Part shown: in pieces, positions 1 through 62,377 of the stretch | How positions within the stretch are numbered: the stretch's first letter is position 1 | Layout of the letters: each line of letters begins with the position of its first letter | NCBI GenBank assembly: GCA_963971405.1 | Contig: OZ020488.1 | Span: forward strand, 32,693,089-32,757,088 | Origin: Psococerastis gibbosa | Lineage: Eukaryota > Arthropoda > Insecta > Psocodea > Psocidae | Length of the DNA: 64,000 nt | Direction of reading: 5' to 3' | The notes under the pieces: model-generated | What the model was told of the DNA's origin: nothing | The model's input: only the letters and a program-made list of their open reading frames with translations | Database searches by the model: none | Translations under genes and position numbers: made by a program

Positions 1-67
1 TCTTGAATGTCTGCTACCACGTCACTGTTTTTGGAAATAGCCCTAGCCGGTCAATGGAATGGGCACC
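1..67. mobile_element. MITE end, GGCG-N3-TTCCAC group, cut by window start
   Basis: The sequence TGTCTGCTACCACGTCAC and the terminus TGGAATGGGCACC followed by TAA are the reverse complement of the left end of the nest at 34539. The other end lies left of the window. Confidence 0.6.
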
Positions 68-6368: not shown

Positions 6369-9300
6369 ATGGGAAAATTAAAGCCTAGACTTAAAGGTAA
6401 AGGGAAGCGCTGGGCTAAGGGGCAGAGCTCAAGCTCTAACCCCACAACTACAAAGTACCGAGATGCTGCAAAGCAGAGATTTTTTTCACCAAACTTAGGT
6501 AAGTTTTGCTCCATGTGATTGGTGGCTACTAGATTAAATTTAGTTTAGAGGATAGCGTGGCATATTGAATGTTTAATAATAACCAAAGAAGTTGTCAATT
6601 TATTTTGGTTTGGGACAGTAAATACCGTGCAAATTTAGATTGCATGATAGACATTAGATATGCAGGTGAGGTTGTTCATTCAGCCGCCCTGTGCATTGAA
6701 ACACAATGTGAATATGACCCGGGTGCCTGCCAAGTTACTCAAAGTTTATTGATGTACTATAAGTAAATTTAATGAAAGAATGATAAACTCTTGAGTAAAT
6801 CGTAACAATAAATAAAAACCTATTTCCAGGTACGACGAGTGCATTAACAATCGGAGCAATAAAAACTCACGAAGCATTTACAAAACATGAAAAACCAGTC
6901 AAACCCGTTCCCAGTGATGTTGATAGTGAAGATGAAGGTAGTTCCATATGGAGTGATGTGTCTTCTTCGTCTTCCCAATTTTCAGGAAAAACATTTGCAT
7001 CAGTTTACAGTGACTGCTCGAATGCTTCCTTTTCAAAGTGAGTTTTGATTTTGTATAATAATTTCTATAATTAATGTATCCGAATGTTCTCTGCAATAGT
7101 CTTGCTAAGTAACTTAACACTTTAATATTGAGTTACGACACGTCTCCGCTGGTATGATGTGTAGACTCGCACAAGTCCAAGCATGCTACCACCATGCCAC
7201 AGAAGCCGAGTGCGCTTTCTATTCCAGTGAATGTTCTTGAATTCTTGATTATTATGCTTGTTATTAATAAGAATAAAGAGGAATTTAAATCATACTGCAT
7301 AGACATTGGAGAGCTGTTCCCGTAGGAAATTGGCAGCTCGAAATTTAATACTTTCTATTTTTATCTAATTAACTAAGCAAGCAATTAAAATATTGGTTTA
7401 TAAGTTTTAGAAAACTTCTTTATGCATCATATAATAGGGTATTGTTAATATTTGGTTATGTAGTTTTTTTATTTATCTATTTGGAGGACATCAGGTTCGT
7501 GCACAGCGGGAACTTGTTCAGTTGTTGTTGAGCGGTCGCCGAAGCATACACAGTACATGTATATACTGTATGTTCTATATGAACCTAACGTATAGTACAA
7601 ATTGGCGCAGTCGGTATATTTTATAGTCATTAGCTTACGTAAAGCCGACTTTCTCCCGAAAGGAGGTTGGTTCTAGTTTTGATTTTTGCTTTCCTATTTA
7701 TTCAATTGCTTGATTTCTACGGATTTACACGTTGGAACCCGAAATTGTGTTTTTTACAAAATGTCTCTATGCCGGTCTATATACGTAACTCGATTTAGGG
7801 CCAAATTACTCGATAGAATTTGATGAAATTCGGCATGTAGGTTATCTATTTCGGTACCTATTATAATTTATAAATAGGGAACCATGTTCGGGTTCACTCG
7901 TACCGGCTCTCTTGGAATGCACCATACCATATGGTAAACAAGGCGAACACTGTGGACATATTTATCAATAGTATGCATGTATGAACATTCAACATTGGAA
8001 GGTGGGTTTGCGCAGTGTTTACTTATGGCTAGTGTTTTCAAATTTTGGTCCGAAGGACGACACAAAAGTATAAGTTATACCGCATTTGGTTCTGTGAGAA
8101 ACATAAGAAAATGAATGTGTTAATGGCTTTAAGATGCACCTAATTAGTATTTTGACGGTCGGCCTCGTCAACTGTTGATTAAACATTCTTACATCAATGG
8201 ATTTCTCTTATAAGGGTAAGACCTGCATTAATATATGTCATTTAATATGTTTTTTAAGGTTCATTCAAAACTTCCAGCCTAAGTCCGCCCTTCATACGGA
8301 AATGCTGGCTGTTCTATCTGCAGTTGCTGAAGTCATCAGAGCTAATGGAGGAACTGAGACTTCCACTGAGTATTTTGGAGCTCTGGTAAATCCTGTTTTG
8401 AAATTTTAGATAAGATAAGTTGTATCTTTTTCAGTAAAACAGTTATAAAAGAGGTTGGAGTGTGTGTGTGTGTGTAATGACGATGAAAAAATTACGTCTT
8501 ACTAACCTGTTCTGTTGAATGGTCAGTACTAGGAATCGGTAACCAACGTCATTTGGCTATAATCCCATTTGAGCTTACAGTTTTTTAATACTGAAAGCTC
8601 AGCTGCTCTGTATATTCGCGTATGTACGATAAGTTGTAATAAATATATTTTGCAGATGACTGCTTTGGATGCCAGTGACTCTGAAAATTCCGTCGCCGCG
8701 ATTCTCTCATTGCTCAGTATGGGAGTGAAAAGCTTGCCCCAAGAAGTTCTCAGGTTGAAATTTTCGGATGCCTCAAAATCAGTTTTGGATGTTATGGGGA
8801 AATATTCTGATGATGAGAATTTTGTAATATTCCGCACTGTAAGTACTTCTATTTGCAATTAAAAATTAATTACAATGCTTAGGCGGGGTTTCCACTTACG
8901 TCAATGGTCAATGGTAAATATGGTTTTGACGTGGTAGCAGACATTTTTAGTATGTCTTTAATGTCTGCTAAATGTACATTTCATATTTCTCATTGATCAG
9001 TGACGTATGTGGAAACCCCGCCTAATGCAATGTTATTAACTGTTAAATGTAACAGCAAAGGCTTTCACGGTTGGAGTCGAATGAAGAACCAGTAGAATCC
9101 GGGCTGATGGGCCGTGGGCGAAATGAAAGTGAACTTCCAAGCGTTTCGTCCACATCTGCGGTCTACGCAATTCCACTGAAGATGTCGACCGCAGATGTTG
9201 ACGAAACGTTGGAAGTTCGCTTTCATTTCGACCACGGCCCACCAGCCCGGATTTTACTGGTTCTTCATTAACTGTTAAATGTTCTTCGTTACAACTGAAA

Positions 9301-12300
9301 ACAGAACTTGGCGGGATTCGAACCCATGATCTATGCCTATCCGGGGCGTCGTCTTATCCGCTGGACAACAATCCCTGACGATGCCTCGAATAGGCGTAGA
9401 TCGTGGGTTCTAATCCCGCCAAGTCCAGGTTTTTCTAAATCCTCTAATTTCGGTTAAATAACGAGGAGGTTACCTCTTCAACCAAAGTTAATTTAATGTC
9501 AGTGTTATATACCATATAGTACTGCAATATATTCTTTTTCACAGGCGATTGGTTTGTTGTCTGTGATGCTGAGAGCGCAAGATTCGACTGTCTGGTCATA
9601 CTCATCATCATTGCATATTTTTCAGTCCGTATTGGTATTCACAGTGCATTCAAAGCCCAAGGTAACCTGGATCCTCATTATTCAAATTTTTAATATGTTA
9701 AAATTGATAAATTGCAGGCTACATTTGACAAATGATAGGCAGAGAAGAAAAAAATGAATTTATTTTGCTATTGCGCATAGTTATAAACTGTCAAATAAGT
9801 TTTAAAAGTTTAAAAAACAATAAATGCCGTACATGATTCCTATTGATTTGAGTGACATGGAGAAGGAAAAGAAAAAGTCTGTTAATATTTCTTTGACCAT
9901 GCTTTTTACAATATTTATGGATATATTGTGTGTGAGCGTAAACTATCCGCTTAGCTACAAAGCTCCAACTTTTTGTTTTATATCTCACCTTCAGCGTTGT
10001 TTTGGGGAATATTTTACCAATTGGCCATTTTTCGATTCCGTTGTCGCCTCATTTTCAGTGATGCTTGATAAAGTTTTATAATTATTATTATCTGATTAAA
10101 TACACCACTGTGGTTTGATTTTCTGAATTTCTAGAGTCAGTTCTGATAATAACATTGACTATTGTATGTATTGAATAATTTTTTTCGTTTTCGCTAGGTG
10201 AGGAAAGCTGCACAGTATGCTGTGTGCGCTATCCTTAAAGGATCTACGCTGATCTCTGAGGAAACTGTTCACCCTGCCGCAGGACCTACCGCCAAGTTTT
10301 GTGTCAATCAAATTCAGGACGACACAGGCATCTCTACTGGAACAACCACGCTCCATATTCTTATGCTCCTGAAGGAAGTTCTCTCAACATTCCCGAAAAG
10401 CCACATTAAGGTATTTATTAATTTGTTAATTGTTATTGAACGACTGCATTATCACCATCATCTACTGTACCATATTGGGCATTATATTAATTCAAAACAG
10501 ATTTTAGTCCATTTCATGCTTATCACTATTAGGCTTTATCATTGGTTTTGCTGAACTTAGCAGGCGCCATTCTGCGCAGTCTTAGTGGGTAGATGAAATC
10601 TCCCTAACATTGAATATACGTTTGAATATTTTGCAGACTACCTGTGAAGCTATCCTCAAACTCCTGACGTTAGGAAAGGTGATGCTGACGAAATGTTGCT
10701 TCCAAGCCCTGCACGGACTGTTCATTTCTGCGCCCCCAGCTACGCGGCTGACTCCAACGTTGAATGCACAGCTTATTAATGCACTCTATGACTACCAACC
10801 TGCTATAACGGACTGGGAGTCTGCCATGGCCTGGTTGTCTGTGATGCAAGAAGCCTACTGTAATTTAGTTCGGTAAGTCGCTTATTAAGTGCTCATGGCG
10901 CTTCGTCGTTGAAGGAAAGATTGTAAAGTAAAACATCGAAGCAATCTCCTTCAGATTCCAGATAATGGGGAAGTAGAAAGGGGTATGATAATGTACTTAT
11001 AATTCAATCTGATTATTGGATCAATCTTTATCCCATGCCTATTCTTTGCAACTGAACAAAGTGCTACTGTAAAGTTCCGTTGGCGATGGCTCTTCGTCGT
11101 CTAAACAGTCACTAACGTTTGGCCCCTGAAGGTTTGCTTCACGATCCCTCTGATACATCAACGAATGCACTTTGTTGGTAGGAGTCGCTACACTCACACA
11201 TTGGACGCAACTGCTGATTTGAAATAATTGGGTAATTGTAAATTCTGTAGAACATGTTGAAATGAATGCTTACATTGAAAACCTCTGAAATTTTGACATT
11301 GGAATAGGTTCATGTCTTTATTTCTAGGTAGCCTACCTCTTGCAATGTATTCGATGTGTCTGCATTCACAATTATAAACAAAATGTTATGATACTTGCAG
11401 CATTGACGCAGGGCTTTGTGCCGAAAACTTATTAAAACTCTTTAATACGGTTTCACAAATTTGGCTAACGGACAATCCTAAACTGGTTGTACATGCGACG
11501 CTTACCCTGCGAGCAATCATTTTCGACTGCCTTCCAAACTGTTCAGAATATTGGAACTACTCAGAAATCTCGCGGAACATATTCTCGGTCGTTGAGGGAG
11601 GACTGAAATATCAGTACCATAACGCTTGGCCGCAAGTCTTGAACCTTCTTGCTGCACTTTTTGAGGTAAGTTCAACTTTAATTAGCTTACAGCTAGCAGT
11701 TGTTTTACAATAGCTCCACTATACCACCTAATATGTTATTCCACTAAGGCTGCTGGGCGGTTTGGTGCCGAAAATGAGGTCTTGCGTGCACTAAACTGCA
11801 CAATACATGGGGGAACCGTATCAGCGCTTTCCGTAGAACCCCAGGAATACGTCAAGCATGTCCTATTTTCTTCCTTTGAAAACTGGGAGTTTAAAATCAT
11901 TTTCGTCTAATTCATATCTGAAAGAAAAGAATGAAAGAAAATTGTATTTATTTTCTATGGGAGCGAATTCTGGACCATTCGCCCCACTCTTACAATCAAC
12001 CCATAACTCTGAGAGCGTTCCCATTATATTTTCAAGTTTCAAAAAACTTTGAGAATGATGTGGATTAGTCGTTAAGAAAACAATTAGAAAGTCAATTATT
12101 TATTTTTTTGTAAATAATTAATAGCATTTACAATAAATTGTTTCATGTATTTGTAGGTACTTGGCACACAATGCGAGGCATTCAATGGCAACTGTTTAAA
12201 GTCACTGGCAGACCTTCGAGACTCATATAATTTTGCCCACTCCGCAGAGCTAGAGTTTACTGTGGGCAGAGCCATCCGCACATTAGGACCTGAATCTGTG

Positions 12301-15300
12301 CTCCGTCGAATTCCGCTCAACATTACTGGGCGTGAAACAAGCTACGAGTTCAAACGGGCCTGGCTGCTTCCAGTTCTCAAGGAAAATGTGCAGACTGCAA
12401 CTCTCGAATATTACGCTCGGTACTTTCTGCCAATTGCAAGTATATGCAGGTAATTAGCGTTCAATTTGTTATAACAGGTGACTGAGTGACGAAGTACCAT
12501 TGTATATATTTGGATGTAATGTTCTTGTGTTTTTTGGGACATCAAACTCATGGCTTCAGAATATGTTTGATGGTTTCTTCAGGAGACAACTGGAAAAGAA
12601 AAGCCGGACAGGTCTCATCATCAGCATCATCAATAATCAGCTCCAGTGGCCCGGGTGTGATTTGTGAGCCTCTTCGCTTCTGATCAGTCGACACTTCCTC
12701 TGGTACCAGTCCCACTCTTCTGAGATCGTCCTGAATTTCGTTTCTGAATCTTACTTGGTCTTCCTCTTCATCGTGTTTCCTGTATTTCTTGTTCAAGCAC
12801 CTGCTGTTATTCATTCGTGGCGTGGTCGATCCGGCTCTGGCTGGTCGGGGACTCTGATTTTTGTATTGTATTCGTTTTACGGGTTGGAACCATTGCAATC
12901 TCCTTTTCTTCTATCTTCTCCACAATTGTTTCTTCCATCCCGAAGTCTCTCCTTTCCCTTCTGGTCCCCTGTTGGGCTGTTCTGATGATTTTCATCTCTG
13001 CAGTTGGTATTTTACTGTCCTGTCTTGTATTTGTTATAGGTGTAAAAAATATGATTGATCACAGTTGGGCAATTAGACTTGTAGAAAGAACAAATAGTGA
13101 AGGTGTCCAATGGAAAGAGTTCCTAAACTAGCCAATCAGTGCTGGTGACGGCCACATATTATTTATCAAAATTTAGAGGATCAGCAGCCTGATCGAGGCG
13201 ATTATAATACCGGTATTTATTTAATCCCCTGGTATTAAAAATGCAAACAAGATAATTTTATAATGGAAAATGCTATTCAAAATTTGTTTGCTTACAGTTA
13301 TAATCCTAGGGTATTTATTTAACCCCGGTATTATAATCGTCTCGATCAGGCTGGAAGTGGAGGTCTCCGGAAGAGCCTTTAATCGGACATTTACAATAAT
13401 ATACTGTGCTTTTTTCTGAACGCTTGGTGTTATAAAGTTCTAAATACAAATTACTTTAAATAAAGTTTTTTTTGTATCTTTGCAATTTCAGAAAGCGATC
13501 CGAAGAATTAGAGAAGGCAAAAGATAATGTTGGAAAACATAGCTACGAGTTGTTATGTAGCCAAATTTGGGCTCTCCTTCCCAGCTTCTGCAATAACCCC
13601 AGTGATGTTGCTTTGAACTTTCGGTCTCTAGCTCCTACATTGGGCACAGTCATGCGCGACCACAAGGGTCTAAGGCTGCCTGTTCTTTCAGCCCTTCGGA
13701 AACTCATCACTAAAAGCCAAGGTAATATAAAATGTCCCGTATCTACTGCAGTGGGCAGGGTATCTCCTGCTGATGAGGAAGTTGACCCTTGATATTGGCC
13801 ACCCCTGGATCACACAGAAATAGGTCGGTTTATATATTTTTTTATTGAATGTATGTAATATTTATGTTCTAATGATTTGGTTTCGTCAATTTGTATAAAC
13901 TATTTCATACACCATATTATGAGGGGTTTTGAGTTTTTGTTGTTATTTTTTCCATGAACTTCATAATTCGGTAGATGTATGTTAGTTTCACGGAAAACCC
14001 ACTGCACTGTACCATTTATAAAATAGTCTTACAATTGACGAGACCAAATCTTAATAACTCTTAAGTATTAAATTACTATGCAAAAAAATATGGAGGTGTT
14101 CAAAGAGCGATTTTTTCAATATATGTGTATATACATACATGTATTGTATATATAATATATGTGGAACGAAAATTTCATTAATTTAATGTTGTTTACAAAG
14201 TTTTGGAAAGATTTACTCTTAATGCTACGGCAGTAGATTTTTTTTTTTGCATCATGTTAGACAGCCATTTCCAACTGCATCAACCTACCTACTTACCACT
14301 TCTGACCGATACCCTCCAGGAATTGGACCACCTCCGTTTACACCTCTCTGTCCAAGTCCTGGAGCACATCCATATATGTGTAAGGCGGCAACTTCCCTTG
14401 GTCCTCCTTGGGCATCAGATTCTATTATTGTACATTATTATTATTATTATTATTAAAGGTAACCTACAATTCTTACCTGGGCAGTTTGTAATCAGAAAAG
14501 ACTATTCACAAAGAATTGTTTCAGGTACTGTAAGCAGGATTCACATAGTATTTTCATTAATTACCAGTTGTGATTGTTTGTCGTTGCAGAAGCAAATAAC
14601 GAAGAAAATATTAAAGTTTTGGGTGGCTTTGCAAAAAATTACTTGCCTCTGTTATTTAACATCTATACTACCAAAGCCGTGGGAAGTGATGAGGAAGGAC
14701 AGCGACTCGCGGCCTATGACACCATCAAAGTCTACTTCTCAGTGACCAAAGCTCAGCTTTGCCACGAGCTGTTTGACAAGGCAGTTGGCATGCTGGAGGG
14801 GGCGGAAGCATTTATGAAAGAGGCAGTGCTGGATCTAGTAAAAGCTCTTTTACCGTATTTGGATATGGAGCGTATTGAAAAAGTTTACAACACTTGCCTG
14901 AGCAATTTAAAATCGGCAAAGAACATTCACGAAGAGAAGAAATCTTACAGGTAGGATTAAATTCGAGTCAATAGGCCAAACGAGTCTCACAACTCACCAA
15001 ATTATCCCTAACTGAACGACATGGATCATCCATTAGAAAATTTGGTAAGCCAATTACACAGATAATCAACACAGTCTACCTTTAAAAATGGGTATGTTAA
15101 TATGTAAATGGATGGTAATTTCGATTCTATCCATATTCATTGCTTTCCTATTTATACGTTGTACAAGGAAAGCTTTGTGAAATGATCGATTTCAAGTGAA
15201 TTAACACGTTTTGAGGTACAAGGAACCCAAAAAAGTGTTTTTTACGAAATGTCTGTCGTCCGTCTGTTTGATCGTCGATTTGTGGGCAAACTACTCAGTG

Positions 15301-18300
15301 GATTTTGATTAAATTTTCCTTTTAAATTCACATAATATGCTTTCCCCTTGATAATTGCTTTCCAATTTATACGTAGTATAAGGAAAGCTTTGTGACGGTC
15401 CAAATTTTCGATTCCGAGATTTCAACGGAATTACACGTATGAGGTACCAGGAACCCAAAAAAGTGGTTTTTACGAAAAGTCTGTCTGTGTGTCGCTCTGT
15501 CTGTCTGTTCATCGATTTCCGGCCGAACTACTCGGTCGATTATGATAAAATTCGGCATGTAGGTTTACAAAAATCATACCTCGGGATCATTTTTATTTTA
15601 TTTTGGGCTAACTCAATTTGGGGGGGGGGGGGTTTATTCTCAAAAAATTCCAAAAAAACGTCTAAAAAAATTATTTCTGAAAAACGGCTCCAACGATTTC
15701 TTTTAAATTCACATATATAGTAGTCGTTATTAATGTTGACAAAATGCGGGGGGTCGTCGCTTGCCCCTTGATAGTTTGCTTCTGGGGGTAAGAAAATAAT
15801 AATAACTAAATTTGAATGAAAAATGACTAAAAAATAATTTTTCTATGGAAACCTTTCTATCGATGATTTCTACCATCAGGCATGTTTTAGGTGTTAAATT
15901 GAGTAACGAAACCGGACAGGTTACTTCCCAAAAAATTATTTGGTTTTGTGCAAAAAATGTTTTTTTTTTAAATGATAGAAAATTCACGATCAAATGCATT
16001 GTGTGCCCTGCCATTATTGCTGTGTGGTAATGTGTTGGTCTGAACCATCTAGAATTTACCTCACCTCCAGTGACGTTAGTTGGACAACCCATCCAACCAA
16101 TCAGTTTTCATATAAAATGACAAAAAACTATTTTTCTGCAGAAGCTTTCCATCGATGCTTTCTTACTTCAGTGGCCGATTATGGCGATTGGTATTAACTT
16201 ACTCCTGGGGTTAAAACTGTAAAAAAAACAATTTTTAATAGCACTTTCCATTGTAAAATTATCTTGTTTACATTTTTAATACCAGGGTATTATATTAACT
16301 TCGGTATTAAAATCGCCATGACCGGGACGCAGGTATGTTTTAGGTGTTAATTAGGGTAACAAAACCGAACAGGTTGCTTTCCCAAACAAAGATTTGGTTT
16401 TGTAAAAAAAAAAAAAAAAAAAAAAAAATCGAGAAATTATGGATAATTCATGCACCAATACCTATCGTAAGCATACCCTGCCACTATTACTGTGCTGTAT
16501 TGCATTATATTGGTCTGCCCATTCTTGACTATGCAATTGTCCCATTGATCAATTCGGGATAGGGAAACTCGAAATTTAAACCTAAACCTCAATTTGACCC
16601 TAGGACAATAATTGACCAAGGAACTGTTACATTGATTGATTAATAGAAAAGCAGGTATGGGTTCACTCGTACCTGTAAACATGGGACCGCGTCTCACCGT
16701 TAAACTACAATTCACGACGTTGGATCTGCTAGTTTGTAAAATTGCCCCTGGTAGACGCTCATAATCATGGGAAGATTTGATACCCAATTAATACTTGCTT
16801 GGGATACCTAGTATTTTTTGAATAGATTTTCCAGTGAATTTTTAACTTGTGACGTAATTTTCTGACCAACTTTCTGGTGTTCCAATTATTTTAGACTGTT
16901 GGAAGACTTATGCAGTTCTGAAGCGAAGCTTTGTCGTGAATTCTTAACAGAAAAAGTTCCGAAAATTCAGAAAATATTATTAAAGTCGTTGAAGAACAAG
17001 CAAGTTACAAATGCAGGAGCGAGGCTTCGTTGTTTACGTCATCTTGTACGGTTGCTGCCTAAAAACCAATATCATATTATCAAAACTATCGTTCCGGAGG
17101 CTATTCTGCGTTGTAAAGATCAGAATGCGAAAACGCGAGCTTGTGCTTTTGATCTTCTTACTGATATGTTGAACGTCTCGAAGGTAACATCAGTTGTAAT
17201 TACTATTATTGCTATTATGCTAGGGTCAGAACTATATGAAAGTGTTTTATATTAATACTATTTCACTGATTGACTATGGCTGATTTTTCGTTACTAAATC
17301 TATATAGGCTAGAGTTACCATATGCACCATTGATTGCACCAAGACTACTTTTGATGTAGTCCGACACACTTCATGTTCAATGGATTTAAGGACTAGGCTA
17401 AATTACATTAAAAAAGTATGCATGTACGTACTATCTATAATTACAGTAGATACGTGCAAATACTACTGTTAGTTACTAATGACTAATTTTAACTCTATAC
17501 CTGCAGTAATACAATTATAGCCGAGGAGTGAATGCATGTGGAAATGTTTATATATTACAATTTCCATTTACAAAAGAAGACATTGAGGTGTATTTGTTGG
17601 TCGTGAGAACAATAAGGCAATAGGACATGTATAGTAGTGGACAGTGGTGCGGACTTTCATCCGAAAGGTTGTTGTTTTCAGAGGGCATGTGAAGCAGGTT
17701 GTCCCGGGGCTTCCTCCACTAAGTTGGCTTAGCAATGGAACAAAATTAATTATTTATTTATCTCTAATATTTTTTTGCCATTTAAAACAATGTATGAGGA
17801 ATTTGAAAGTTCTAATTTTGTCTCTGTATTCCATTTCAGGAGTGGTCCGAGAAGCCAGATGACGTTTTAATTCAAGATTATTTTACAATGTTAATGGGAG
17901 GATTGTCAGGGTCACCAACATTGATATCAGCAACATTGCTGGGTCTAGCAAAACTTACCTTTGTTCTGAGGGACGAGTTACCTTTAGACGTCTTACAAAC
18001 GGTCCTTGTACAGATTTCTGTTCTGTTGGAAAGACCCCAACGAGAAATTACAGCTGCTTGCTTGAGTTTTATTAAAACTTATATTTCTTCGTATAGAAGA
18101 GATGCTATTCTACCACATGTCCCTGTTATTGTAAGTTTGATTGATACTGCTAATTAATACTGGTAAATGATGCTAGTTTTTTTTTTTAAATTGTGAATAA
18201 TTTAGATTGTCCAGCAGCCTACCTTCCTTACTATACCTTCATTTGTTCACTTTCGTTAGGCAGTCACGTCTATACCTTTAAAACATTCCAATTAGATTCT

Positions 18301-21008
18301 ACGGAGGCCATAAGATGAAATGTTCATAATATCACGATAATCTTAATATTGATCATTGACTCTTCCAAGGCATGAATATCTGATATGAAACTGTTGATTT
18401 ACCAAAATTCTAATAATGCGGGTTTAATTCCGTTCCAGGTTCAAAGCATCGTATCGATGAAAGAGGATTGTAAGAGACATTCACGTACTCAAATTCGAGA
18501 CATTTTAGATAGATTACTGCGGAAATATGATTATGATACTATTAAAGTTCTTATACCCGAAGAAGATTCAATAATGCAGAAGAGGTTAAAGAATTTGAGG
18601 AAGATTAATTCTAGAAAGAAAAAGCTAAAGGAGGCTGCGATGGAAGAAAATGAGGATTACGAAACGCAGTTTTCCGTTAAAAACAAGCCTAAAAGGTTAC
18701 CATTTTATTTTAACGATTATTTGTCAAAAATTCTTTAAAATAGCGAACCTTGTACAATAAACAGTACGAGGTGGCGGATTGAAGTGATTTTTACAAAATA
18801 GTTCATAAAGAAACCAACCAGTACCAAACTTTGAACTTTAAAAGTGCAGGATCAGTATTTCCGTACAAAGACAAACATTGTGCAATGAGGTTCTATAGGG
18901 ACAGTTTTGGTCACTAGGTTCGCAGACGACAAACCGATATCCATATTATTCAAAATGGCCGCCATTTGCATGTGAAAACTAAGCTCTTAGCATCTAATTA
19001 ATTCTTTAAATATTGTTTATAATATGTTTACTATGCCTGGACCTTATTTCGCTGCATATAATTTAATATATATATTCTCCATGATTTATAGAAAAATATC
19101 ACTTCAAAATAATACATAAATAAATAATTTAAAAATATTATTGTGGCTTATGGAAAAATCAACGCTTTGATATCTTAGCAACTGGCGCTGCCATCTACAA
19201 AATGACGTCACAAATGAACCTCATACCTACTAGATGTTAATACTTACTACTGCAGGCTGATCATGGTGATTATAATACCGGTATTTATTAAATCCCCTGG
19301 TATAAAAAATGTAAACAAAATAATTTTATAATGGAAAGTTCTATTCAAAATTTGTTTGTTTACATTTTTAATACCAGGGGATTAAATAAATACCGGTATT
19401 ATAATCGCCATGATCAGGCTGCTACTGGTCGCTTAGACCGTCCCTAAATATTCTAAATATTACCTATGTTATCAGCTGCCACGGTTCACTTCACCGCAAC
19501 TCATTAGACATTTTCGATTCATTAAAATTGAAATTAAGCACCATGTAGTGATGCACAGTCGTGCCTTTTTTTTACCCAAGGTTGCTTCTGGATTAGGGAA
19601 CAAATAATGCACATCCCTTATATTGAAGCTGCTACTCTCTGTGGCCTATCTACTGCAGCTCTAATTAGAACTCCATTCTAAGAACTTTTTTGTTGCTTCA
19701 GCATTGAAGAAATATTGGCGTCCAGTGACGAATCTGAGGAGGAAATTGAAGAGGCTGAGCCTCAGAAAGGAAGGAAAATGGGCGCACAAATGTACATTCG
19801 GGAAGATGAGGATGACATAGTAGATTTAATATCACCCGCAGCGGCTAGTAAACTTTCTGGTAACTTTCCAATATAGTCAGACAATATATTATGTACCTAA
19901 ATTAGTACACTTTACATATTATGTATACTGTAAATGTATGCTGTGAAGCTGGAGCTTCCTCATAAATCATCCAAGACCAGAAATTATTAAAACAATTAAT
20001 GATTAATAGCTCTTGCAATCTCTTGTCAATAGTCATTTCAAGCTCTGACTGCATGTAAGGTTTATTTCGTTGTGAAATTGTCTAAGCATTTGTACGCTCT
20101 AAATTGATGTATTCGTTTTTAGCAAGGAAACCAACAGTACACACAGTGGTGCCGGAGAAAAAGAGAGAATTGGGCTACAAGATGACATCAGATGGCCGAC
20201 TGATTATAACTCAAGAGAAGGGAGATGGGCCTGTGGGGAAAGTAAGAAAAGACTCCATCGATCTTAACGACTCAGACGATGATATAGATGATGCAGCGAC
20301 AGAATTAAGTAAAGTAGAAATTGGAAAGAAACGCAAGTTGGCAGCGTCTTCGCAGTCCCTTGCTTCTGGTGCCTCATCTAGGTATCAGGGTGAGTGTTCA
20401 TATTTCGATATCTATCGTACAATTAGTGAAAACAAACAATTGGCCTACATGACTCATATTACCCAGAACCTCACATGGCCAGATAATTTTTTATTATTAG
20501 ATGTACGTATGTTAGAAAAAATTTCAGCTATTCCCATTTACCATATTATGAAATTCTTACGTAGGTGAGTAGAATGGCAAAATGAACATGCGACAGGCCG
20601 TTCATCAGATAGGTCTGCTTAACAAAGTGAAATTGGTATCGATTGCAATTCCATTTTTCCCCCTATTGACACCACACTCTAAACGTTACTTGTACGTAGC
20701 AAATTATAGATTACGGTGAATTTCTAGCTGGTGGCAGTGGAATTCATCGACCCATTCCGTCAAAGCTTGGGCAGAAGAAGCGAAAGGTTGACGATGATGG
20801 AGGAGTGAAAACCGGCAAAGAATATAGAGCGAAGAAAGCCAGGGGAGACGTCAAGGTCAAGGGCAAGCCAGACCCTTACGCTTACATCCCCCTTTCTCGG
20901 AAAATGCTGAGCAAAAGGAAAAAGGCCAAAATGAGCACTAAGTTCAGAAATGTAATAAATGGGGCTGTAAAAGGCGCTAGGACTGGCTCCAAAAGAAGAA
21001 AGAAATAG
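6369..21008 (+). CDS. RRP12: RRP12-like ribosome maturation factor (17 exons, complete)
   Basis: RRP12 is a nuclear HEAT-repeat protein needed for late pre-ribosomal RNA processing and export of ribosomal subunits. Exons: 6369-6498, 6830-7037, 8259-8385, 8656-8838, 9545-9661, 10198-10410, 10637-10872, 11401-11665, 12157-12449, 13492-13721, 14590-14950, 16895-17183, 17840-18130, 18439-18695, 19702-19859, 20123-20389, 20728-21008. All phases join without a break and give 1301 aa; human RRP12 is 1297 aa. The start was chosen because MGKLKPRLKGKGKRWAKGQ, then SSNP and RFF, matches the family's N-terminus. Middle exons hold conserved blocks such as RKAAQYAVCAILKGS, NAQLINALYDY and the helical HEAT/NUC173 region. 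The tail has the acidic SIEEILASSDESEEE stretch, AGGSGIHRP, and a lysine-rich end (DPYAYIPL, SRKMLSKRKK, GSKRRKK) that looks like a nuclear localisation region. Donor 18696 is GTTACC, weaker than the rest. Introns hold many repeats. Assignment is from remembered family sequence. Confidence 0.95.
7307..7490. repeat. fold-back repeat, TAGGAAATTGGCAGC family, partial
   Basis: CCCGTAGGAAATTGGCAGC starts the copy, followed by TTAATTAACTAAGCAAG-like and ATCATATAATAGGGTATT blocks shared with 4487 and 56925. It lies in RRP12 intron 2. Confidence 0.55.
7590..7860 (+). repeat. partial copy of the 15.4/27 kb repeat
   Basis: AAATGTCTCTATGCCGGTC, then GGGCCAAATTACTCGATAG and ATGAAATTCGGCATGTAGG match the conserved centre of the longer repeats at 15361 and 26725. 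It lies in RRP12 intron 2. Confidence 0.5.
8882..9022. mobile_element. 141-bp palindromic MITE, GGCG-N3-TTCCAC group
   Basis: Ends GGCGGGGTTTCCAC and GTGGAAACCCCGCC are exact complements. The core has GACGTGGTAGCAGACAT and its inverted partner ATGTCTGCT. It is flanked by TTA on the left and TAA on the right. It lies in RRP12 intron 4. Confidence 0.85.
9081..9268. repeat. 188-bp near-perfect palindrome
   Basis: ATGAAGAACCAGTAGAATCC on the left pairs with GGATTTTACTGGTTCTTCAT on the right, and the complementarity runs to the centre at GACCGCAGATG. A diverged half copy (CGCAGATGTTGACGAATCG) lies near 38380. Probably a fold-back MITE. Confidence 0.7.
9303..9535. mobile_element. tRNA-derived SINE family 1, two copies head to head
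   Basis: A minus-strand head with the B box GGTTCGAATCCCGCC (9306-9377) abuts a plus-strand partial head and full tail (9380-9535). The tail blocks TAACGAGGAGGTTACCTC and TTCAACCAAAGTTAATTT match the copies at 57849 and 58178. It lies in RRP12 intron 4, just before exon 5. Confidence 0.7.
12580..13130 (-). mobile_element. LINE remnant, 3' part of reverse transcriptase ORF
   Basis: On the minus strand two overlapping frames encode VKIIRTAQQGTRRERRDF-like and LQWFQPVKRIQYKNQS-like segments, then VRFRNEIQDDLRRVGL. This is the order seen in the C-terminal tail of RTE- or CR1-like LINE proteins (EKRLQWFGHVKRM, then GRPR and a D-L-R motif). At least one frameshift separates the frames. It lies antisense in RRP12 intron 9. 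Confidence 0.6.
13185..13352. mobile_element. 168-bp palindromic MITE, CAGCCTGATC family
   Basis: Ends CAGCCTGATCGAGGCGATTA and its complement TAATCGTCTCGATCAGGCTG, with CCGGTATTTATTTAA inside. Same family as 16169, 19253 and 27326. It lies in RRP12 intron 9. Confidence 0.8.
14433..14456 (+). repeat. ATT microsatellite
   Basis: A run of about eight ATT units in RRP12 intron 10. Confidence 0.8.
15140..15360 (+). repeat. partial copy of the 15.4/27 kb repeat
   Basis: GCTTTCCTATTTATACG, GAGGTACAAGGAACCCAAAA and ACGAAATGTCTGTCGTCC repeat the beginning of the longer unit that follows directly at 15361, so two copies lie in tandem, the first one cut short. Confidence 0.6.
15361..16168 (+). repeat. 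long dispersed repeat, class unknown
   Basis: Starts TTTCCAATTTATACGTAGT and ends near CACCTCCAGTGACGTTAG and a partial second unit. It contains GGTACCAGGAACCCAAAAAA, a CTGTCTGT microsatellite, GAAATTCGGCATGTAGG-like sequence, an 11-13 base G run and AACGAAACCGGACAGGTTAC. A reverse-oriented copy lies at 26725-27590. No coding capacity, so it is a non-autonomous element of unresolved class. Confidence 0.6.
16169..16332. mobile_element. diverged MITE, CAGCCTGATC family
   Basis: TATGGCGATTGGTATTAAC on the left and GGTATTAAAATCGCCATGA on the right form the ends; the interior ACTTTCCATTGTAAAATTAT matches the copy at 27326. It interrupts a partial unit of the repeat at 15361. Confidence 0.6.
17634..17760 (+). 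mobile_element. tRNA-derived SINE family 2, decayed copy
   Basis: GACAGTGGTGCGGACTTTCA, ATCCGAAAGGTTGTTG, GAGGGCATGTGAAGCAGG and TTGGCTTAGCAATGGAAC line up with copies at 37868 and 46621. It lies in RRP12 intron 12. Confidence 0.65.
18886..19223. mobile_element. 338-bp repeat with TGAGGTTC ends
   Basis: The ends TGAGGTTC and GAACCTCA are inverted. Inside are GGGACAGTTTTGGTCACTAG, CAAAATGGCCGCCATTTGC and CAACTGGCGCTGCCATC. A second copy in reverse orientation (62565-63167) carries a MITE insertion. It lies in RRP12 intron 14. Confidence 0.65.
19253..19421. mobile_element. 169-bp palindromic MITE, CAGCCTGATC family
   Basis: Ends CAGGCTGATCATGGTGATTA and TAATCGCCATGATCAGGCTG; CTACTG stands directly on both sides (19247-19252 and 19422-19427). 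It lies in RRP12 intron 14, 30 bp after the previous repeat. Confidence 0.8.
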
Positions 21009-34500: not shown

Positions 34501-36754
34501 GCACAGAAATGGAATATCGCGACTCCGGTTTGCCCTTAGGTGCCCATTCCATTGACCGGCTAGGGCTATTTCCAAAAACGGTGACGTGGTAGCAGACATT
34601 CAATGAAAGAATGCCATAGTTAAAATTGATCAATGATCATAAAGTAAAATCACAAACAAACTAAAATTAAAAAATGGCGTCATGGGATATGTTAAGTACA
34701 AACATTTTAATAGATTTCTATAAAAAGAAAAATTCTAATTTCCGTCAATGTCATTTGCATTCTGCAATGCGAGGTCGATGGAAACCCCGCCTAAGTCTTG
34801 AATGTCTGCTACCACGTCACTGTTTGTTTGGTTTTCTTTGTATAGGTGCCCATTCCACATACGTACAACGTCAATGAAAATTATGAAATTGAAGGTGGTA
34901 GCAGAATTTTTAGTATGTCTTTAATGTCTGCTACCACCTTCAATTTCATAATTTTCATTGACGTTGTACGTATGTGGAATGGGCGCCATAGAAATCTATT
35001 AAAATGTTTGTACTTCAACATATCCCATGACGCCATTTTTTTAATTTTAGTTTGTTTTATTGTGATTTCACTCTATGATCATTGATCTATTTTAACTATG
35101 GTATGGCGCCCATTGGTGCCCATTCCACATACGGGGGGTATTCCATATACGTACAACGTCAACGAAAAATTGAAAAATGACGTTTTAGCAGACATTAAAG
35201 ACATACTAAAAATTCTGCTACCACGTCAATTTACGTCATTTTGACGTCATTTTTCAATTTTTCGTTGACGTTGTACGTATGTGGAATGGGCACCTACGTA
35301 CAACGTCAACGAAAAATTGAAAAATGACGTCAAAATGACGTAAATTGACGTGGTAGCAGAATTTTTAGTATGTCTTTAATGTCTGCTAAAACGTCATTTT
35401 TCAATTTTTCGTTGACGATTGACGTATATGGAATACCCCCCATTCCACATACGTACAACGTCAATGAAAATTATGAAATTGAAGGACATTTCAATTTCTC
35501 ATTGATGGGGGCCATTCCATATGTTTTTCAAAAATTGACAATTTTCAATTGAAACGTATGCGCCAAATTTTTGAAATTTGCTTCTTGAAATTGTATTTGT
35601 TTTCTTCGTCGCCTTATTATTTAATCCTTATTATAATTTTTATACAGAAATGCTTTCTTTTTAGAGAAATCAATTAAAATAGTTGTACTTGTCATATCAC
35701 ATGACGCCATTTTTTAATTTTAGATTGTTTGTGATTTTTCTCTATTATCAATTGATCATTGATCAATTTTAACAATGGCATAGAGTAAAATTGAAATGCC
35801 CAAATTGAAGTGTCCATTCCACGTACAACGTCAATGAAAATTATGAAATTGAAGGGCATTTCAATTTTACTCTATGTTATTGTTAAAATTGATCAATGAT
35901 CAATTGATAATAGAGTAAAATCACAAACAATGAAACAAACAATCTAAAATTAAAAAATGGCGTCATGTGATATGACAAGTACAACTATTTTAATTGATTT
36001 CTCTAAAAAGAAAGCATTTCTGTATAAAAATTATAATAAGGATTAAATAATAAGGCGACGAAGAAAACAAATACAATTTCAAGAAACAAATTTCAAAAAT
36101 TTGGCGTATACGCTTCAATTGAAAATTGTCAATTTTTGAAAAACATATGGAATGGCCCCCATCAATGAGAAATTGAAATGTCCTTCAATTTCATAATTTT
36201 CATTGACGTTGTACGTATGTGGAATGGGCGCCTTATGGAGTAAAACAAATATTTCCGTCAATGTCATTTGCATTCTGCAATGCAAGGTCGGTGGAAACCC
36301 CGCCTAAGTCTTGAATGTCTGTTACCACGTCACCGTATTTGTGGAATAAGCGCCTTAAATAATGAACACCACAAACTTGAAACTATGTGGTTAGTAGCCG
36401 GAAGGTAAATAAATCAAGGCCTAACTATGATCAATAATAGAATGTAGTCAATGTACTTTAGTTTTGCATTTATATTATGTAACCTACCCAGCTTAATTAA
36501 TACAATTTCAAAAATCTCTTACCGGAACTGTATTTGGGAGAACTCTCATATTTGGGAGAAGGGTAGTAGCTCGAAGTTGATGAAGAAGTGCCGCGACCTC
36601 CTCTTGGATAGTAGCCGCCACGACTTGAGCCTCGCGATCCCCTACTACCTCTATAGGGAGTATACGAGTCGCTGGAGCCTCTGTAGGAATTGCCTCCGCG
36701 ATAAGATGATCGCGGTCTTGAAGTAGATGGATAATAATCCATTTTATTCGTCAC
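22550..36754 (-). CDS. Pep: Pep-like zinc-finger protein (protein on ecdysone puffs type, 10 exons)
   Basis: Exons in transcript order: 36754-36523, 32132-31984, 30563-30235, 29426-29363, 27834-27769, 26249-25926, 25282-25090, 24137-23860, 23002-22882, 22683-22550; all phases join and give 629 aa. Residues 1-77 are Tyr/Ser/Arg/Gly rich with RGG and RGS repeats, an RNA-binding type of region. Four matrin-like zinc fingers follow: CPHC near 301, CLIC near 367, CRIC near 398 and CEVC near 493, each with two histidines. The C-terminus is acidic, with DELWGLGKLLDES and GGRFDRF. This layout fits Drosophila Pep, an hnRNP-associated nuclear protein found on active ecdysone puffs (716 aa there). The fly name rests on remembered architecture; ZNF326-type proteins are an alternative. 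A second ATG at codon 5 is equally usable. Intron 1 spans 4.4 kb and holds the nested MITE stack. Confidence 0.75.
26702..27590 (-). repeat. long dispersed repeat, reverse copy interrupted by a MITE
   Basis: This is the reverse complement of the unit at 15361: AACCTGTCCGGTTTCGTTAC, the G run at 26702, ACCACTTTTTTGGGTTCCTG and AATTTCGACCATCACAAAGC. The MITE at 27326-27494 splits it. It lies in introns 5 and 6 territory of the Pep-like gene (between exons 27769 and 26249). Confidence 0.6.
27326..27494. mobile_element. 169-bp MITE, CAGCCTGATC family, inserted in another repeat
   Basis: Ends CAGTCTGATCGAGGCGATTA and TAATCGCCTCGATCAGGCTG. The host repeat reads GGGTTCCTG before and CTGGTACCTC after; the uninterrupted host at 15449 reads (in reverse complement) GGGTTCCTGGTACCTC, so CTG was duplicated. 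Confidence 0.85.
28234..28674 (+). mobile_element. hAT transposase remnant with right terminal repeat
   Basis: In one plus-strand frame the sequence gives LNDLEKEDKIIF, SNDLLKKLAFAVLSLFGS and then CEQSFSSMNIIKSKLRSRL, matching the C-terminal dimerisation end of SCAND3/ZBED-type hAT transposases (CEQ.FS.M...KS..R..L). Stops interrupt the frame. Downstream, GGCCGACCACTG at 28663-28674 fits a hAT terminal repeat (CAGTGGTCGGC). The 5' end is missing. It lies in intron 4 of the Pep-like gene. Confidence 0.65.
32832..33650 (+). mobile_element. LINE fragment: reverse transcriptase C-terminal half
   Basis: The plus strand reads VPQGSVLGPTLFIIYINDYV and then GLFADEN, the non-LTR reverse transcriptase core (QGSxLGP, FADD), continuing through LILNMGKTNFVVF, WKPHDNN, HLRYGVICWGNS and finally SVSEFFEVYRS with a stop. 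The second D of FADD is E here and several stops and frame changes break the frame, so it is dead. It sits in intron 1 of the Pep-like gene. Confidence 0.8.
34150..34538. mobile_element. MITE with about 120-bp inverted repeats
   Basis: GGGCAAACCGGAGTCGC at the left and GCGACTCCGGTTTGCCC at the right bound arms that share TTCCATATTTC/GAAATATGGAA, AACAATGAA and GCTGAATGG in mirror order. It directly abuts the nested MITE stack at 34539. Confidence 0.75.
34845..34987. mobile_element. 143-bp palindromic MITE with ATA target duplication
   Basis: Ends GGTGCCCATTCCACATACGT and ACGTATGTGGAATGGGCGCC; ATA on both sides. The outer MITE without this insertion is preserved at 61407-61410, where TTTTATAGAAATC is continuous. 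Confidence 0.9.
35133..35441. repeat. 309-bp palindrome made of two inverted MITE copies
   Basis: GGGGGGTATTCCATATACGT at the left pairs with ACGTATATGGAATACCCCCC-like sequence at the right (a small ATTGACGT variation), meeting at about 35290. Each half is itself a MITE with the TAGCAGACATTAAAGACATA core. Confidence 0.8.
35438..36228. repeat. giant palindrome, arms about 365-375 bp, 52-bp loop
   Basis: The left arm 35438-35801 and right arm 35854-36228 are near-perfect inverted copies, from CCCATTCCACATACGTAC to AGTAAAATTGAAATGCCC and back. The loop 35802-35853 itself repeats ACGTACAACGTCAATGAAAA. Such a structure can extrude as a cruciform and is hard to assemble. Confidence 0.85.
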
Positions 36755-38747: not shown

Positions 38748-39134
38748 GGCGGCTATTCCACTGGTCGATTTTGCTTCAAATTTGATTTGAGATTTTTGTT
38801 TTAATTTATGACATTTTCCATTTTAATTTCCTCATGTTAATATTGATCAATTATCACAGAGTAAAATCACGCGTTGCCAACAATAACAAACTAAAATTAA
38901 ACAATGGCGTCGTCTAGAGATGATGAATAATTTAAATTAATTTCTTGACAACGAACGAATTATTTCGTAGTTTAAATCATAAAATTTCTTGTAGATTATA
39001 TAATTAAAAGAAATTTGAAAAAAAAGATCAATAATGTTGAAAACAAGTGGAAAGGGGTGTAAAAAAAATGCAACATTGTTGATTTTCGGTCAATGACAAA
39101 ATTTGAAGGAAAATCGACCTGTGGAATAGCCGCC
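38748..39134. mobile_element. 387-bp MITE, GGCG-N3-TTCCAC group
   Basis: Ends GGCGGCTATTCCACTGGTCG and CGACCTGTGGAATAGCCGCC extend to about 30 bp of inverted match. TAA stands on the left and TGA on the right. The interior has CTAAAATTAAACAATGGCGT, as in other long members. Confidence 0.8.
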
Positions 39135-39423: not shown

Positions 39424-40967
39424 CAGTGTTGCTCATAATAATAGGGATACAGTGAATTTTCCAATCTCCAAAAATCTCCAAAATGGCAAGAGTTTTGGCC
39501 TTGATTGTTAGCAGTAACTAACATGGCAAGAAGTTTGATATGTTGTGTAAATTTCATTCCAATTGCCCAAGAGCGTGAGAATCTAATGAAGATTTTCAAA
39601 AATACGTCGGTCATAATAATAGGGACATTACCTTTACTTCTATAATAAAATGCAGATAAATTAACAAATTACAATTTAATCATCAATACTTGGTAGATTG
39701 CCTCTTGTTATGAAGAACAGCATTGCATCTTGAGTTCATTGAAGTGACCAAATTCTGGGCAAGAGACACAGGGATGTTGTACCACGCTTTTTGAACTTCT
39801 TGCCAAAGGTGGTCTTTGTTCTTGATTGTATCTTTAGCAATACTCTTCTTAAGTTCATTCCATATGTTTTCTATCGGATTCAAGTCCGGTGATTGTGCTG
39901 GCCACACCATAACAGATATTTTTTTCCCCGCGAACCAGTTCTTCACCAATTTCGATGAATGTTTTGGGTCATTATCTTGTTGGAATTGCCACAGCAGTGG
40001 CATGTTTTCTTCTGCATAAGAAAGCATTTCATTTTCTAATATGTTCCGATAGATTTTCTTAGTCATAATGTCCCTGATGAGGTGAATAGAACCAACTCCG
40101 TTGAACGAGAAACAACCCCATACCATTATGTTTCCTCCACCGAACTTAACAGTCTTCCTGGTGTACTTAGGATTGAATGCGGCGTTAGTTGGCCTTCTCA
40201 CGAACTGCTGGCCATCAGACCCAAAGAGATTTATCTTGGTTTCATCGCTCCATAGGACGATCCTCCAATTGACCCGATGGCGGTGTGTTTGAGCAAACCT
40301 CAAGCGATCCTTAATGTTCTTTTTGGACAACAATGGCACCTTCCTGGGAATCCTGGATGGCAGTCCAGCTTCAAATAGACGTCGTCGAATTGTACCGGGG
40401 CTGATTGACGCACCAACACGTTCCTTTAGCGTTCTTGAGGACGCGAATGGGTCGCGCTTGGATTCGCGGAGAAGGAAACGGTCAAAATTTTCGGGTGTCT
40501 TCCTAGGCCGACCTCTTTTTTCGACTGCAGTTTGTTCCTTTAACGCGTTGGCCGCCATTGTTTTTGATCGATCGACTAAATCAGCATTTTTCTGATGCTG
40601 AACCCTTTCTTCCGCAAGCCGCAGATAATTCTTCTTTCATCATCAAAGCAATGTTTCATACGGCCCATTTTCTCAAAATATCTTGAGATATTAAGTGGCA
40701 AGAGGCCTTGGGCAGATTTTTAAATTTTCTTTGTTTTTGGCCTAAATAAAAACAAAAACTAGACTCGCGTCCTTATTATTAAGACCAGCGAAAATTTTAA
40801 AAAAATTCTTGAACGCTTTAAGTTCTTGATAATTTTTAACCAAACTCACACAAAATATTCAGATAACCAAGCCGTCAACTACTGCTGACTATAATTGTGG
40901 TATCTCATTGGGTTTAAAAAAAAAAATTGAAAAATTCGAAGTGTCCCTATTATTATGAGCAACACTG
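39424..40967 (-). mobile_element. Tc1-like transposon, complete ends, TA duplication
   Basis: The 1544-bp element starts CAGTGTTGCTCATAATAATA and ends with the exact complement, flanked by TA (39422-39423, 40968-40969). Internal repeats of the same motif (GGTCATAATAATAGGGAC near 39606 and a diverged mate near 40770) give the IR/DR pattern of Tc1 elements. It carries the transposase described separately. Confidence 0.92.
39683..40663 (-). CDS. Tc1-like transposase, DD34E, one N-terminal frameshift
   Basis: The transposase cuts and pastes the element by its terminal repeats at TA sites. The uninterrupted frame 40558-39683 gives 291 aa with KRGRPRKTP (hinge), WSDETKINLFG (first Asp), QQDNDPKHSS (second Asp) and SPDLNPIENIWNELKK (catalytic Glu). 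Upstream the same frame reads ADLVDRSKT back to about 40580, while the natural start, MGRMKHCFDDERRIICG at about 40663, lies in another frame. The change falls in an A run near 40590. So the catalytic domain is whole but the DNA-binding part is broken by a single frameshift. Confidence 0.9.
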
Positions 40968-61266: not shown

Positions 61267-61590
61267 GGCGGGGTTTCCACCGACCTCTCATTGCAGAATG
61301 CAAAGACATTGACGTGGCAGCAGACATTCAAGACTTAGGCGTGCATTCCACCGACCTCACATTGCAGAATGCAAATGACATTGACGGAAATTTGAATTTT
61401 TCTTTTTATAGAAATCTATTAAAATGTTTGTACTTAACATATCCCATGACGCCATTTTTTAATTTTAGTTTGTTTGTTTGTTATTTTACTCTATGATCAT
61501 TGATCAATTTTAACTATGGCATAGAGTGAAACAAAAATTTCCGTCAGTGTCATTTGCATTCTGCAATGAGAGGTCGGTGGAAACCCCGCC
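61267..61590. mobile_element. 324-bp MITE, GGCG-N3-TTCCAC group, uninterrupted
   Basis: Ends GGCGGGGTTTCCACCGACC and GGTCGGTGGAAACCCCGCC, flanked by TTA and TCA. Inside are GACATTGACGTGGCAGCAGA and the minus-strand ATGGCGTCATGGGATATG block. It is the uninterrupted counterpart of the outer element at 34539-36354. Confidence 0.85.
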
Positions 61591-62182: not shown

Positions 62183-62377
62183 GGCGCGGTTTTCACCGAC
62201 CGGCTAGGGCTAAATACAAATACGGTGACGTGGTAACAGACATTCAAGACTTAGACGGGGGCTTCCACCGACTTCGCATTGCAGAATGCAAATGACACTG
62301 ACCGCCTAAGTCTTGAATGTCTGCTACCACGTCACCGTATTTGTATTTAGCCCTAGCCGGTCGGTGGAAACCCCGCC
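62183..62377. mobile_element. 195-bp palindromic MITE with ATA target duplication
   Basis: Ends GGCGCGGTTTTCACCGACC and GGTCGGTGGAAACCCCGCC, with ATA at 62180-62182 and 62378-62380. The core is GGTGACGTGGTAACAGACAT against ATGTCTGCTACCACGTCACC. Confidence 0.88.

What the first reader, a model, noticed from the sequence alone, without database searches (positions are those of the whole stretch)
34539..36354. Russian-doll stack of MITEs with readable insertion order
One 1.8-kb block in intron 1 of the Pep-like gene is built by repeated insertion of one MITE group into itself. The outer ends are TTA-flanked; a 143-bp member (34845-34987) sits inside at ATA; a further block of about 1.1 kb (from about 35103 to 36232) interrupts the same outer element at ACTATGG. 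The uninterrupted outer element at 61267-61590 shows both empty sites (TTTTATAGAAATC and ACTATGGCATAGAG). Self-nesting at this density suggests strong target preference for the group's own sequence.
Basis: seen in the sequence. Interest (0 to 1): 0.75.

Follow-up and report, generated by a model that had tools for sequence, protein, structure and literature searches.

The report
Mobile elements nested inside their kin
A 1.8-kb stretch of a large genome is a one-off stack of seven copies of short, related jumping elements, several of which landed inside one another; this is a known habit of such elements, here counted across one genome and found to favour a few exact spots at the elements' own ends.

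Summary
The stack is real, and as a whole it was found once in the 409-Mb genome. It is more complex than read. The "outer element" is two truncated elements with different ends (R, F) meeting head to head. A 143-bp member lies in F with ATA on both sides. The "1.1-kb block" is four copies: C and D (428-bp family) head to head with the centre lost, B (162-bp family) in C's end at ATT, and A (162-bp family) in B's end at TAC. All are dispersed Tourist/Harbinger-like MITEs with mostly TTA/TAA duplications. Genome-wide, 72 junctions join two members across one TTA/TAA, against 2,414 member ends followed by TTA/TAA; the TAC in the shared terminal repeat is interrupted 12 times against 2,428 intact. 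Both exceed a rough chance estimate. For the 162-bp family the shared site is hit about 9 times more often than TTA/TAA sites within 120 bp; the 428-bp sample does not show this. Nested MITEs are long known: a new member of a known kind. A by-product is more novel: 33 of 87 solo copies have unequal duplications, and one nested host equals an intact relative except for one base of the duplication, as if the element carried its donor's triplet.

The parts
34536..34538 (.). TTA left flank (outer duplication)
34539..34825 (-). R: truncated member of a ~380-bp family (end GGTGCCCATTCCATTGACCGG), lacking ~56 bp inside and the last ~37 bp
34826..34844 (+). F, first piece: core sequence up to and including ATA; F's left arm is missing (the junction with R has no duplication; boundary good to a few bases)
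34845..34987 (.). E143 element in F with ATA on both sides (34842-34844 / 34988-34990); 143/143 identical to L171
34988..35104 (+). F, second piece (core), ending ACTATGGTAT
35105..35114 (-). C, first piece: end of an E428 copy (GGCGCCCATT), reverse orientation
35115..35132 (-). B, first piece: E162 copy, reverse, in C with probable duplication ATT (35112-35114 / 35442-35444)
35133..35294 (+). A: E162 copy, 162/162 identical to the commonest E162 sequence, in B with TAC on both sides (35130-35132 / 35295-35297)
35298..35441 (-). B, second piece
35445..35801 (-). C, second piece: E428 copy lacking its last ~49 bp, with 3 substitutions and a 12-bp deletion of its own
35810..36232 (+). D: E428 copy, head to head with C, left tip altered, 3 other substitutions
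36233..36354 (+). F, last piece: right arm and a different terminal shell (..GTGGAATAAGCGCC)
36355..36357 (.). TTA right flank (outer duplication)
61267..61590 (+). related element with the uninterrupted core and both empty sites; has dispersed relatives

Best explanation
The block is a one-off pile-up of MITEs of one Tourist/Harbinger-like group, built by successive cut-and-paste insertions. Most likely order: R and F landed side by side at one TTA and lost their shared centre (inferred). C and D landed head to head inside F at TAT and also lost their centre (inferred). E143 landed in F at ATA (shown by its duplication). B landed in C's terminal repeat at ATT (duplication readable; a run of C leaves one base of doubt). 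A landed in B's terminal repeat at TAC (shown by its duplication). It works because the group's own ends offer targets: member ends are mostly followed by TTA/TAA, with the favoured C before TTA supplied by ..CC|TTA, and the shared terminal repeat holds a TAC that is hit repeatedly. Regional clustering adds to this.
For: Whole composite once among 40 scored candidates; no other place matches more than 533 of the 1,901 query bases in one piece. Parts are dispersed families: E428 (33 top-scoring copies at 99.07-100% to a 428-bp reference), E162 (373 exact left ends), E143 (7 of 8 fetched places parsed as 143-bp copies with TTA/TAA flanks), R (39 other scored places share 34611-34825, and at least 20 of them also the terminal shell). 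Inner layers are closest to their families: A 0/162, E143 0/143, B two single-base indels that recur in L180 and partly in L013, C and D three substitutions each with none shared, R about 7 differences from L168. Self-targeting: 72 distinct junctions sharing TTA/TAA (86 strand matches) against 2,414 TTA/TAA-flanked ends; 0.8-1.9 expected if 8,000-20,000 insertions fell evenly on such sites. TAC site: 12 interrupted against 2,428 intact; 0.08-0.19 expected if 6% of those insertions used TAC/GTA (insertion numbers and 6% assumed). Local control, E162: 8 of 107 TTA/TAA flanks abut a member, against 13 of 1,498 other such sites within 120 bp (odds ratio 9.2, p 3e-5). C before TTA in 25 of 44 solo sites (p 2e-8 against 18.5%).
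Against: The R/F and C/D junctions have no duplication; their side-by-side origin and centre loss are inferred. The block's right flank is TTAT where TAT is expected. F's divergence was not measured against its own family. In the E428 sample 1 of 66 ends abuts a member. Sites near E162 copies are also above the genome-wide estimate, so clustering contributes, and copies in one nest are not independent. Group sequence covers 1.4% of the window outside the block and 3.9% of E428 flanks; a random background could not be fetched. Both junctions were read in 4 of the 12 TAC-site cases, and one, L163, is fragmentary. The numerator and denominator patterns differ in stringency.
Confidence: 0.82

Rival explanations
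1. The large palindromes (35133-35441 and 35439-36228) arose by inverted duplication in place (hairpin or template switching), not by separate insertions.
For: Near-perfect arms (294 nt at 99%, 151 nt at 97%); the C/D and R/F junctions lack duplications.
Against: A is a complete element with TAC on both sides inside B. C and D carry different private changes and share none. A equals the commonest E162 sequence while B carries a variant seen in L180. R and F have different ends.
Confidence: 0.1
2. The density reflects regional clustering only (open chromatin, relaxed selection, or short-range hopping), with no preference for own sequence.
For: 13 of 1,498 other TTA/TAA sites within 120 bp of E162 copies are occupied, above the rough genome-wide estimate; E428 flanks beyond 300 bp are 3.9% group sequence; the E428 sample shows 1 of 66 abutting ends.
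Against: For E162, occupancy at the exact shared TTA/TAA is about 9 times that of neighbouring sites; the same TAC of the terminal repeat is hit 12 times, at 11 places on 7 contigs, by four kinds of element end.
Confidence: 0.12
3. The stack is an assembly artefact.
For: Long palindromes are hard to assemble; no reads were available.
Against: Inner junctions carry 3-bp duplications of the group's usual size, and the same kinds of junction recur at many other places.
Confidence: 0.04

Closest known systems
Nested Tourist-like MITEs and MITE multimers of maize and rice (Jiang and Wessler 2001; not held; seen only as cited, '11% of MITEs exist in multimers', in a passage of PMC10664404)
   Same: Short non-coding elements of the TTA/TAA-duplicating kind inserted in and beside each other (the details of that paper are recalled).
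   Different: Another genome and other families; here a TAC site inside the terminal repeat and a side-by-side mode sharing one TTA/TAA are counted genome-wide.
mPing / PIF-Harbinger transposition (passages of PMC2836001; passages and section 8 of PMC4561436)
   Same: TTA/TAA targets, preference extending beyond the triplet, staggered cleavage of the duplication proposed.
   Different: 33 of 87 solo copies here have unequal duplications; for mPing with TCA flanks 45 of 46 insertions were at TTA/TAA and one at TCA.
Nested and mosaic PIF/Harbinger elements of Medicago (passages of PMC2213677)
   Same: Members of the superfamily rearranged by nested insertions.
   Different: The nested insertions in the passages seen are mainly other transposons in large elements; here short members interrupt members of the same group.
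MULE arrays in guayule and rice (passages of PMC5907723)
   Same: Multi-element arrays formed by target preference.
   Different: Those arrays target microsatellites and are not nested; here elements interrupt each other.

Membership tests
Tourist-like MITE (PIF/Harbinger superfamily) | 3-bp target site duplication, mostly TTA/TAA | tested here: met
   54 of 87 solo copies have equal triplets, 44 of these TTA or TAA; but 33 of 87 are unequal
Tourist-like MITE (PIF/Harbinger superfamily) | Terminal inverted repeats beginning with GG | tested here: met
   GGTGCCCATTCC../..GGAATGGGCGCC in E428 and E143, GGGGGGTATTCC../..GGAATGGGCACC in E162; that GG ends are typical of the superfamily is recalled
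Tourist-like MITE (PIF/Harbinger superfamily) | Short, high-copy, homogeneous elements | tested here: met
   143, 162 and 428 bp; 373 exact E162 left ends; 2,428 exact terminal repeats
Tourist-like MITE (PIF/Harbinger superfamily) | Target preference extending beyond the triplet | tested here: met
   C before TTA in 25 of 44
Tourist-like MITE (PIF/Harbinger superfamily) | Autonomous partner with the same terminal repeats | tested here: inconclusive
   150 scored DDE_Tnp_4 matches, many with the same score and open frame; of 3 fetched at about 4 kb each, none showed a matching pair of ends, though L180 holds an E162-like copy nearby; two longer members (2.0 and 1.3 kb) have no ORF above 123 aa (not searched in a library)
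Tourist-like MITE (PIF/Harbinger superfamily) | Precise excision by ORF1 plus transposase | not testable with these tools
   needs an excision assay
Composite that moves as one unit | The same composite at several places | tested here: not met
   whole block once among 40 scored candidates. Older, smaller shell-and-core composites do recur: 14 of the 40 scored E395-type places show the full reverse arm (query 1/2-127), and R

The most novel reading that the evidence does not exclude
The group's transposase integrates elements that still carry the donor's 3-nt flank, so one copy of the duplication is often replaced by the donor's triplet. 33 of 87 solo insertions have unequal duplications, 32 of the 33 with TTA/TAA on at least one side. 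Nested copies reveal the pre-insertion base: in L122 the host equals an intact 142-bp relative over its whole length except that the right copy of TAC reads TAA; L115 shows the same TAC/TAA pattern with the insert in the other orientation, in a less intact host. If so, each insertion keeps a 3-bp memory of where it came from, and self-nested copies are a natural assay for the chemistry.
Probability: 0.35. Interest if true: 0.6.

Novelty: new member of a known kind. Interest (0 to 1): 0.4.

Why it matters
Self-nesting shows that MITE ends can be targets for their own kin. That would spare host genes, seed long palindromes that then lose their centres, and give rise to new composite families (the E395 and R families look like old shell-and-core insertions that multiplied; inference). 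Because the host sequence of a nested copy is known, such copies also test how the duplicated triplet is made; here they suggest a donor-derived triplet in some insertions.

Tried and rejected
First thought that the two large palindromes were in-place inverted duplications; dropped after A was found complete with TAC on both sides in B and C and D proved to have different changes.

First thought, from hit lengths, that L011 and L013 shared the block's B/C junction; reading them showed E428 and E162 side by side sharing TTA/TAA, a different junction.

Core ATA site as a hotspot: the block and L012 (an end-trimmed E428 copy) both hit it, but 0 of the 5 other exact ATTTCTAT junctions lay in the core. 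Not shown.

Autonomous partner: two long members (L177, L178) were E428 copies with other sequence inside and no ORF above 104 and 123 aa. Three transposase neighbourhoods had no matching pair of ends.

2-bp TA duplication with extra bases, instead of unequal 3-bp duplications: TTA and TAA on the two sides are not independent (26, 7, 8, 18; Fisher p 4e-4), 10 of 54 equal triplets are neither TTA nor TAA, and L122 does not fit.

Samples: the E162 copies are the first 80 by position of 373 (C1 and part of C2) and were picked by an exact 28-base left end. The E428 copies are the best-scoring ones, so their identity is biased upward. One search used 87 copies: 50 of 80 E162 (17 without a readable right end, and 13 more of 18 listed by hand as in or beside the group, were dropped), 30 of 35 E428 (L011, L012, L032, L037, L058 dropped), 7 of 8 E143 (L169 not parsed). 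One search used 143 readable ends of 160, of which 107 had TTA/TAA.

Full report
What is there. The window lies in a 409-Mb assembly of 68 contigs. The block 34539-36354 is flanked by TTA on both sides. As a whole it matches once among the 40 scored candidates; no other place matches more than 533 of the 1,901 query bases in one piece.

Parts. Searching pieces and reading dispersed copies gave four kinds of element. E428: 428 bp, GGTGCCCATTCC to GGAATGGGCGCC; 33 top-scoring copies are 99.07-100% identical to the reference. E162: 162 bp, GGGGGGTATTCC to GGAATGGGCACC, 373 exact left ends. E143: 143 bp, with arms like those of E428 (47 of 47 nt; copies). Older elements of about 320-395 bp share a core and differ in their end shells. 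Among these is R (L167, L168), which reads as a shell, TTA, an inner element with its own GG..CC ends, TTA or TAA, and the shell again. I read that as an old nest that has itself multiplied: 39 other scored places share 34611-34825, and at least 20 of them the terminal shell too.

Anatomy of the block. R (34539-34825, reverse) has lost about 56 bp inside and about its last 37 bp and runs straight into F, whose left arm is missing. R and F have different terminal shells, so the outer ends are not a pair. E143 (34845-34987) sits in F with ATA on both sides. At ACTATGGTAT in F begins C (E428, reverse). Ten bases in, C is interrupted by B (E162, reverse) with ATT on both sides, and B is interrupted after its 18th base by A (E162, forward) with TAC on both sides. 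C resumes at 35445, lacks its last 49 bp, and meets D (E428, forward), which ends at 36232. Then comes TTAT and the rest of F.

Order. A equals the commonest E162 sequence (0/162), E143 equals L171 (0/143), and B differs from E162 by two single-base indels; the same variant is visible in an E162-like copy in L180 and in part in L013. C has three substitutions and a 12-bp deletion; D has three other substitutions and an altered tip; none is shared. R differs from L168 at about 7 positions besides its gaps. F was not measured against its own family. This fits outer-before-inner insertion. The R/F and C/D junctions carry no duplication. I infer side-by-side landing followed by loss of the palindrome centre, because intact side-by-side pairs are found at 72 junctions (below); no allele shows it.

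Is it self-preference? Two exact contexts were counted over the genome. Members joined across one TTA/TAA: 86 strand matches, 72 distinct junctions, against 2,414 ends followed by TTA/TAA (that pattern asks six more bases). If 8,000 to 20,000 insertions fell evenly on all TTA/TAA sites, 0.8 to 1.9 would be expected (insertion numbers assumed, base composition approximate; the first look saw 7,596 candidates). The TAC in the shared terminal repeat: 12 interrupted against 2,428 intact, by four kinds of end; 0.08 to 0.19 expected if 6% of the same insertions used TAC or GTA, 1.3 to 3.2 if all did. Both junctions were read in 4 of the 12; one, L163, is fragmentary. At L158 one element was hit at this site in both of its terminal repeats.

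Controls. As a control for regional clustering, 8 of 107 TTA/TAA flanks of the first 80 of 373 E162 copies abut a member, against 13 of 1,498 other TTA/TAA sites within 120 bp (odds ratio 9.2, p 3e-5). Some of the 13 are ends of the same nests, which makes this conservative; copies in one nest are not independent, which works the other way. By similarity to a 7-sequence library, 12 of the 80 lie in or against the group. Against this, the E428 sample shows 1 of 66 abutting ends, and group sequence makes up 1.4% of the window outside the block and 3.9% of E428 flanks, so clustering is part of the story. The core ATA site is not shown to be a hotspot. Solo insertions favour C before TTA (25 of 44), which a member's own end (..CC|TTA) supplies; that bias is modest and cannot by itself give the whole enrichment (inference).

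Unequal duplications. In 87 solo copies, 54 have equal triplets (26 TTA, 18 TAA, 10 others) and 33 unequal, 32 of them with TTA or TAA on at least one side. The copies are nearly identical to their families, so later mutation is unlikely. In six nested insertions at the terminal-repeat TAC with both junctions readable, four are TAC/TAC (the block, two in L158, one in L164) and two TAC/TAA (L122, L115, L115 in a less intact host). The L122 host is otherwise identical to an intact 142-bp relative, which argues against recombination between distant copies there. Staggered cutting of the duplication has been proposed for mPing (passages of PMC4561436) and could leave a donor triplet on the element. 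But mPing with TCA flanks gave 45 of 46 insertions at TTA/TAA and one at TCA (section 8), which speaks against common carry-over in mPing. I found no report of it for the superfamily (listings only); the library holds open-licence papers only.

What it is. By duplication, ends, size, copy number and target bias, the elements are Tourist-like MITEs of the PIF/Harbinger kind. The genome gave 150 scored DDE_Tnp_4 matches, many with the same score and open frame, but no autonomous copy with these ends was found in the few places read. Nested MITEs and MITE multimers are known from rice and maize (Jiang and Wessler 2001, not held; cited with 11% of rice MITEs in multimers in a passage of PMC10664404). 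The stack is therefore a deep but ordinary example; the unequal duplications are the part a specialist would follow up.

Noticed in passing
sample of E162, E428, E143 copies (L014-L066, L077-L156, L170-L176): 33 of 87 solo copies have unequal 3-bp flanks, 32 of them with TTA/TAA on at least one side; suggests donor triplet carry-over.
   Followed up: partly
L158 (C1:35966500-35967100): One short element hit at the same TAC in both of its terminal repeats, by E162 in one and by a 143-bp insert in the other, each with TAC on both sides.
   Followed up: partly
L167, L168, L002, L004, L008: The R and E395 families look like old shell-and-core insertions (TTA/TAA between the shell and inner GG..CC ends) that now recur as units.
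   Followed up: partly
window 1-67, 8890-9019, 38836-38961, 62183-62377: Further pieces similar to the group elsewhere in the window.
   Followed up: no
window 39683-40636, minus strand: 317-aa stop-to-stop ORF of a Tc1/mariner-type transposase (HTH_Tnp_Tc3_2 and DDE_3).
   Followed up: no
G000; L179-L181: Many DDE_Tnp_4 matches with the same score (127.2 bits) and a 384-aa open frame on many contigs, which suggests recent Harbinger activity; the 3 neighbourhoods read show no pair of this group's ends.
   Followed up: partly
L032 (C1:13169471-13172910): Several partly overlapping E428 matches close together, one copy apparently inserted within E428 sequence (flank TAATAGAGTA).
   Followed up: no
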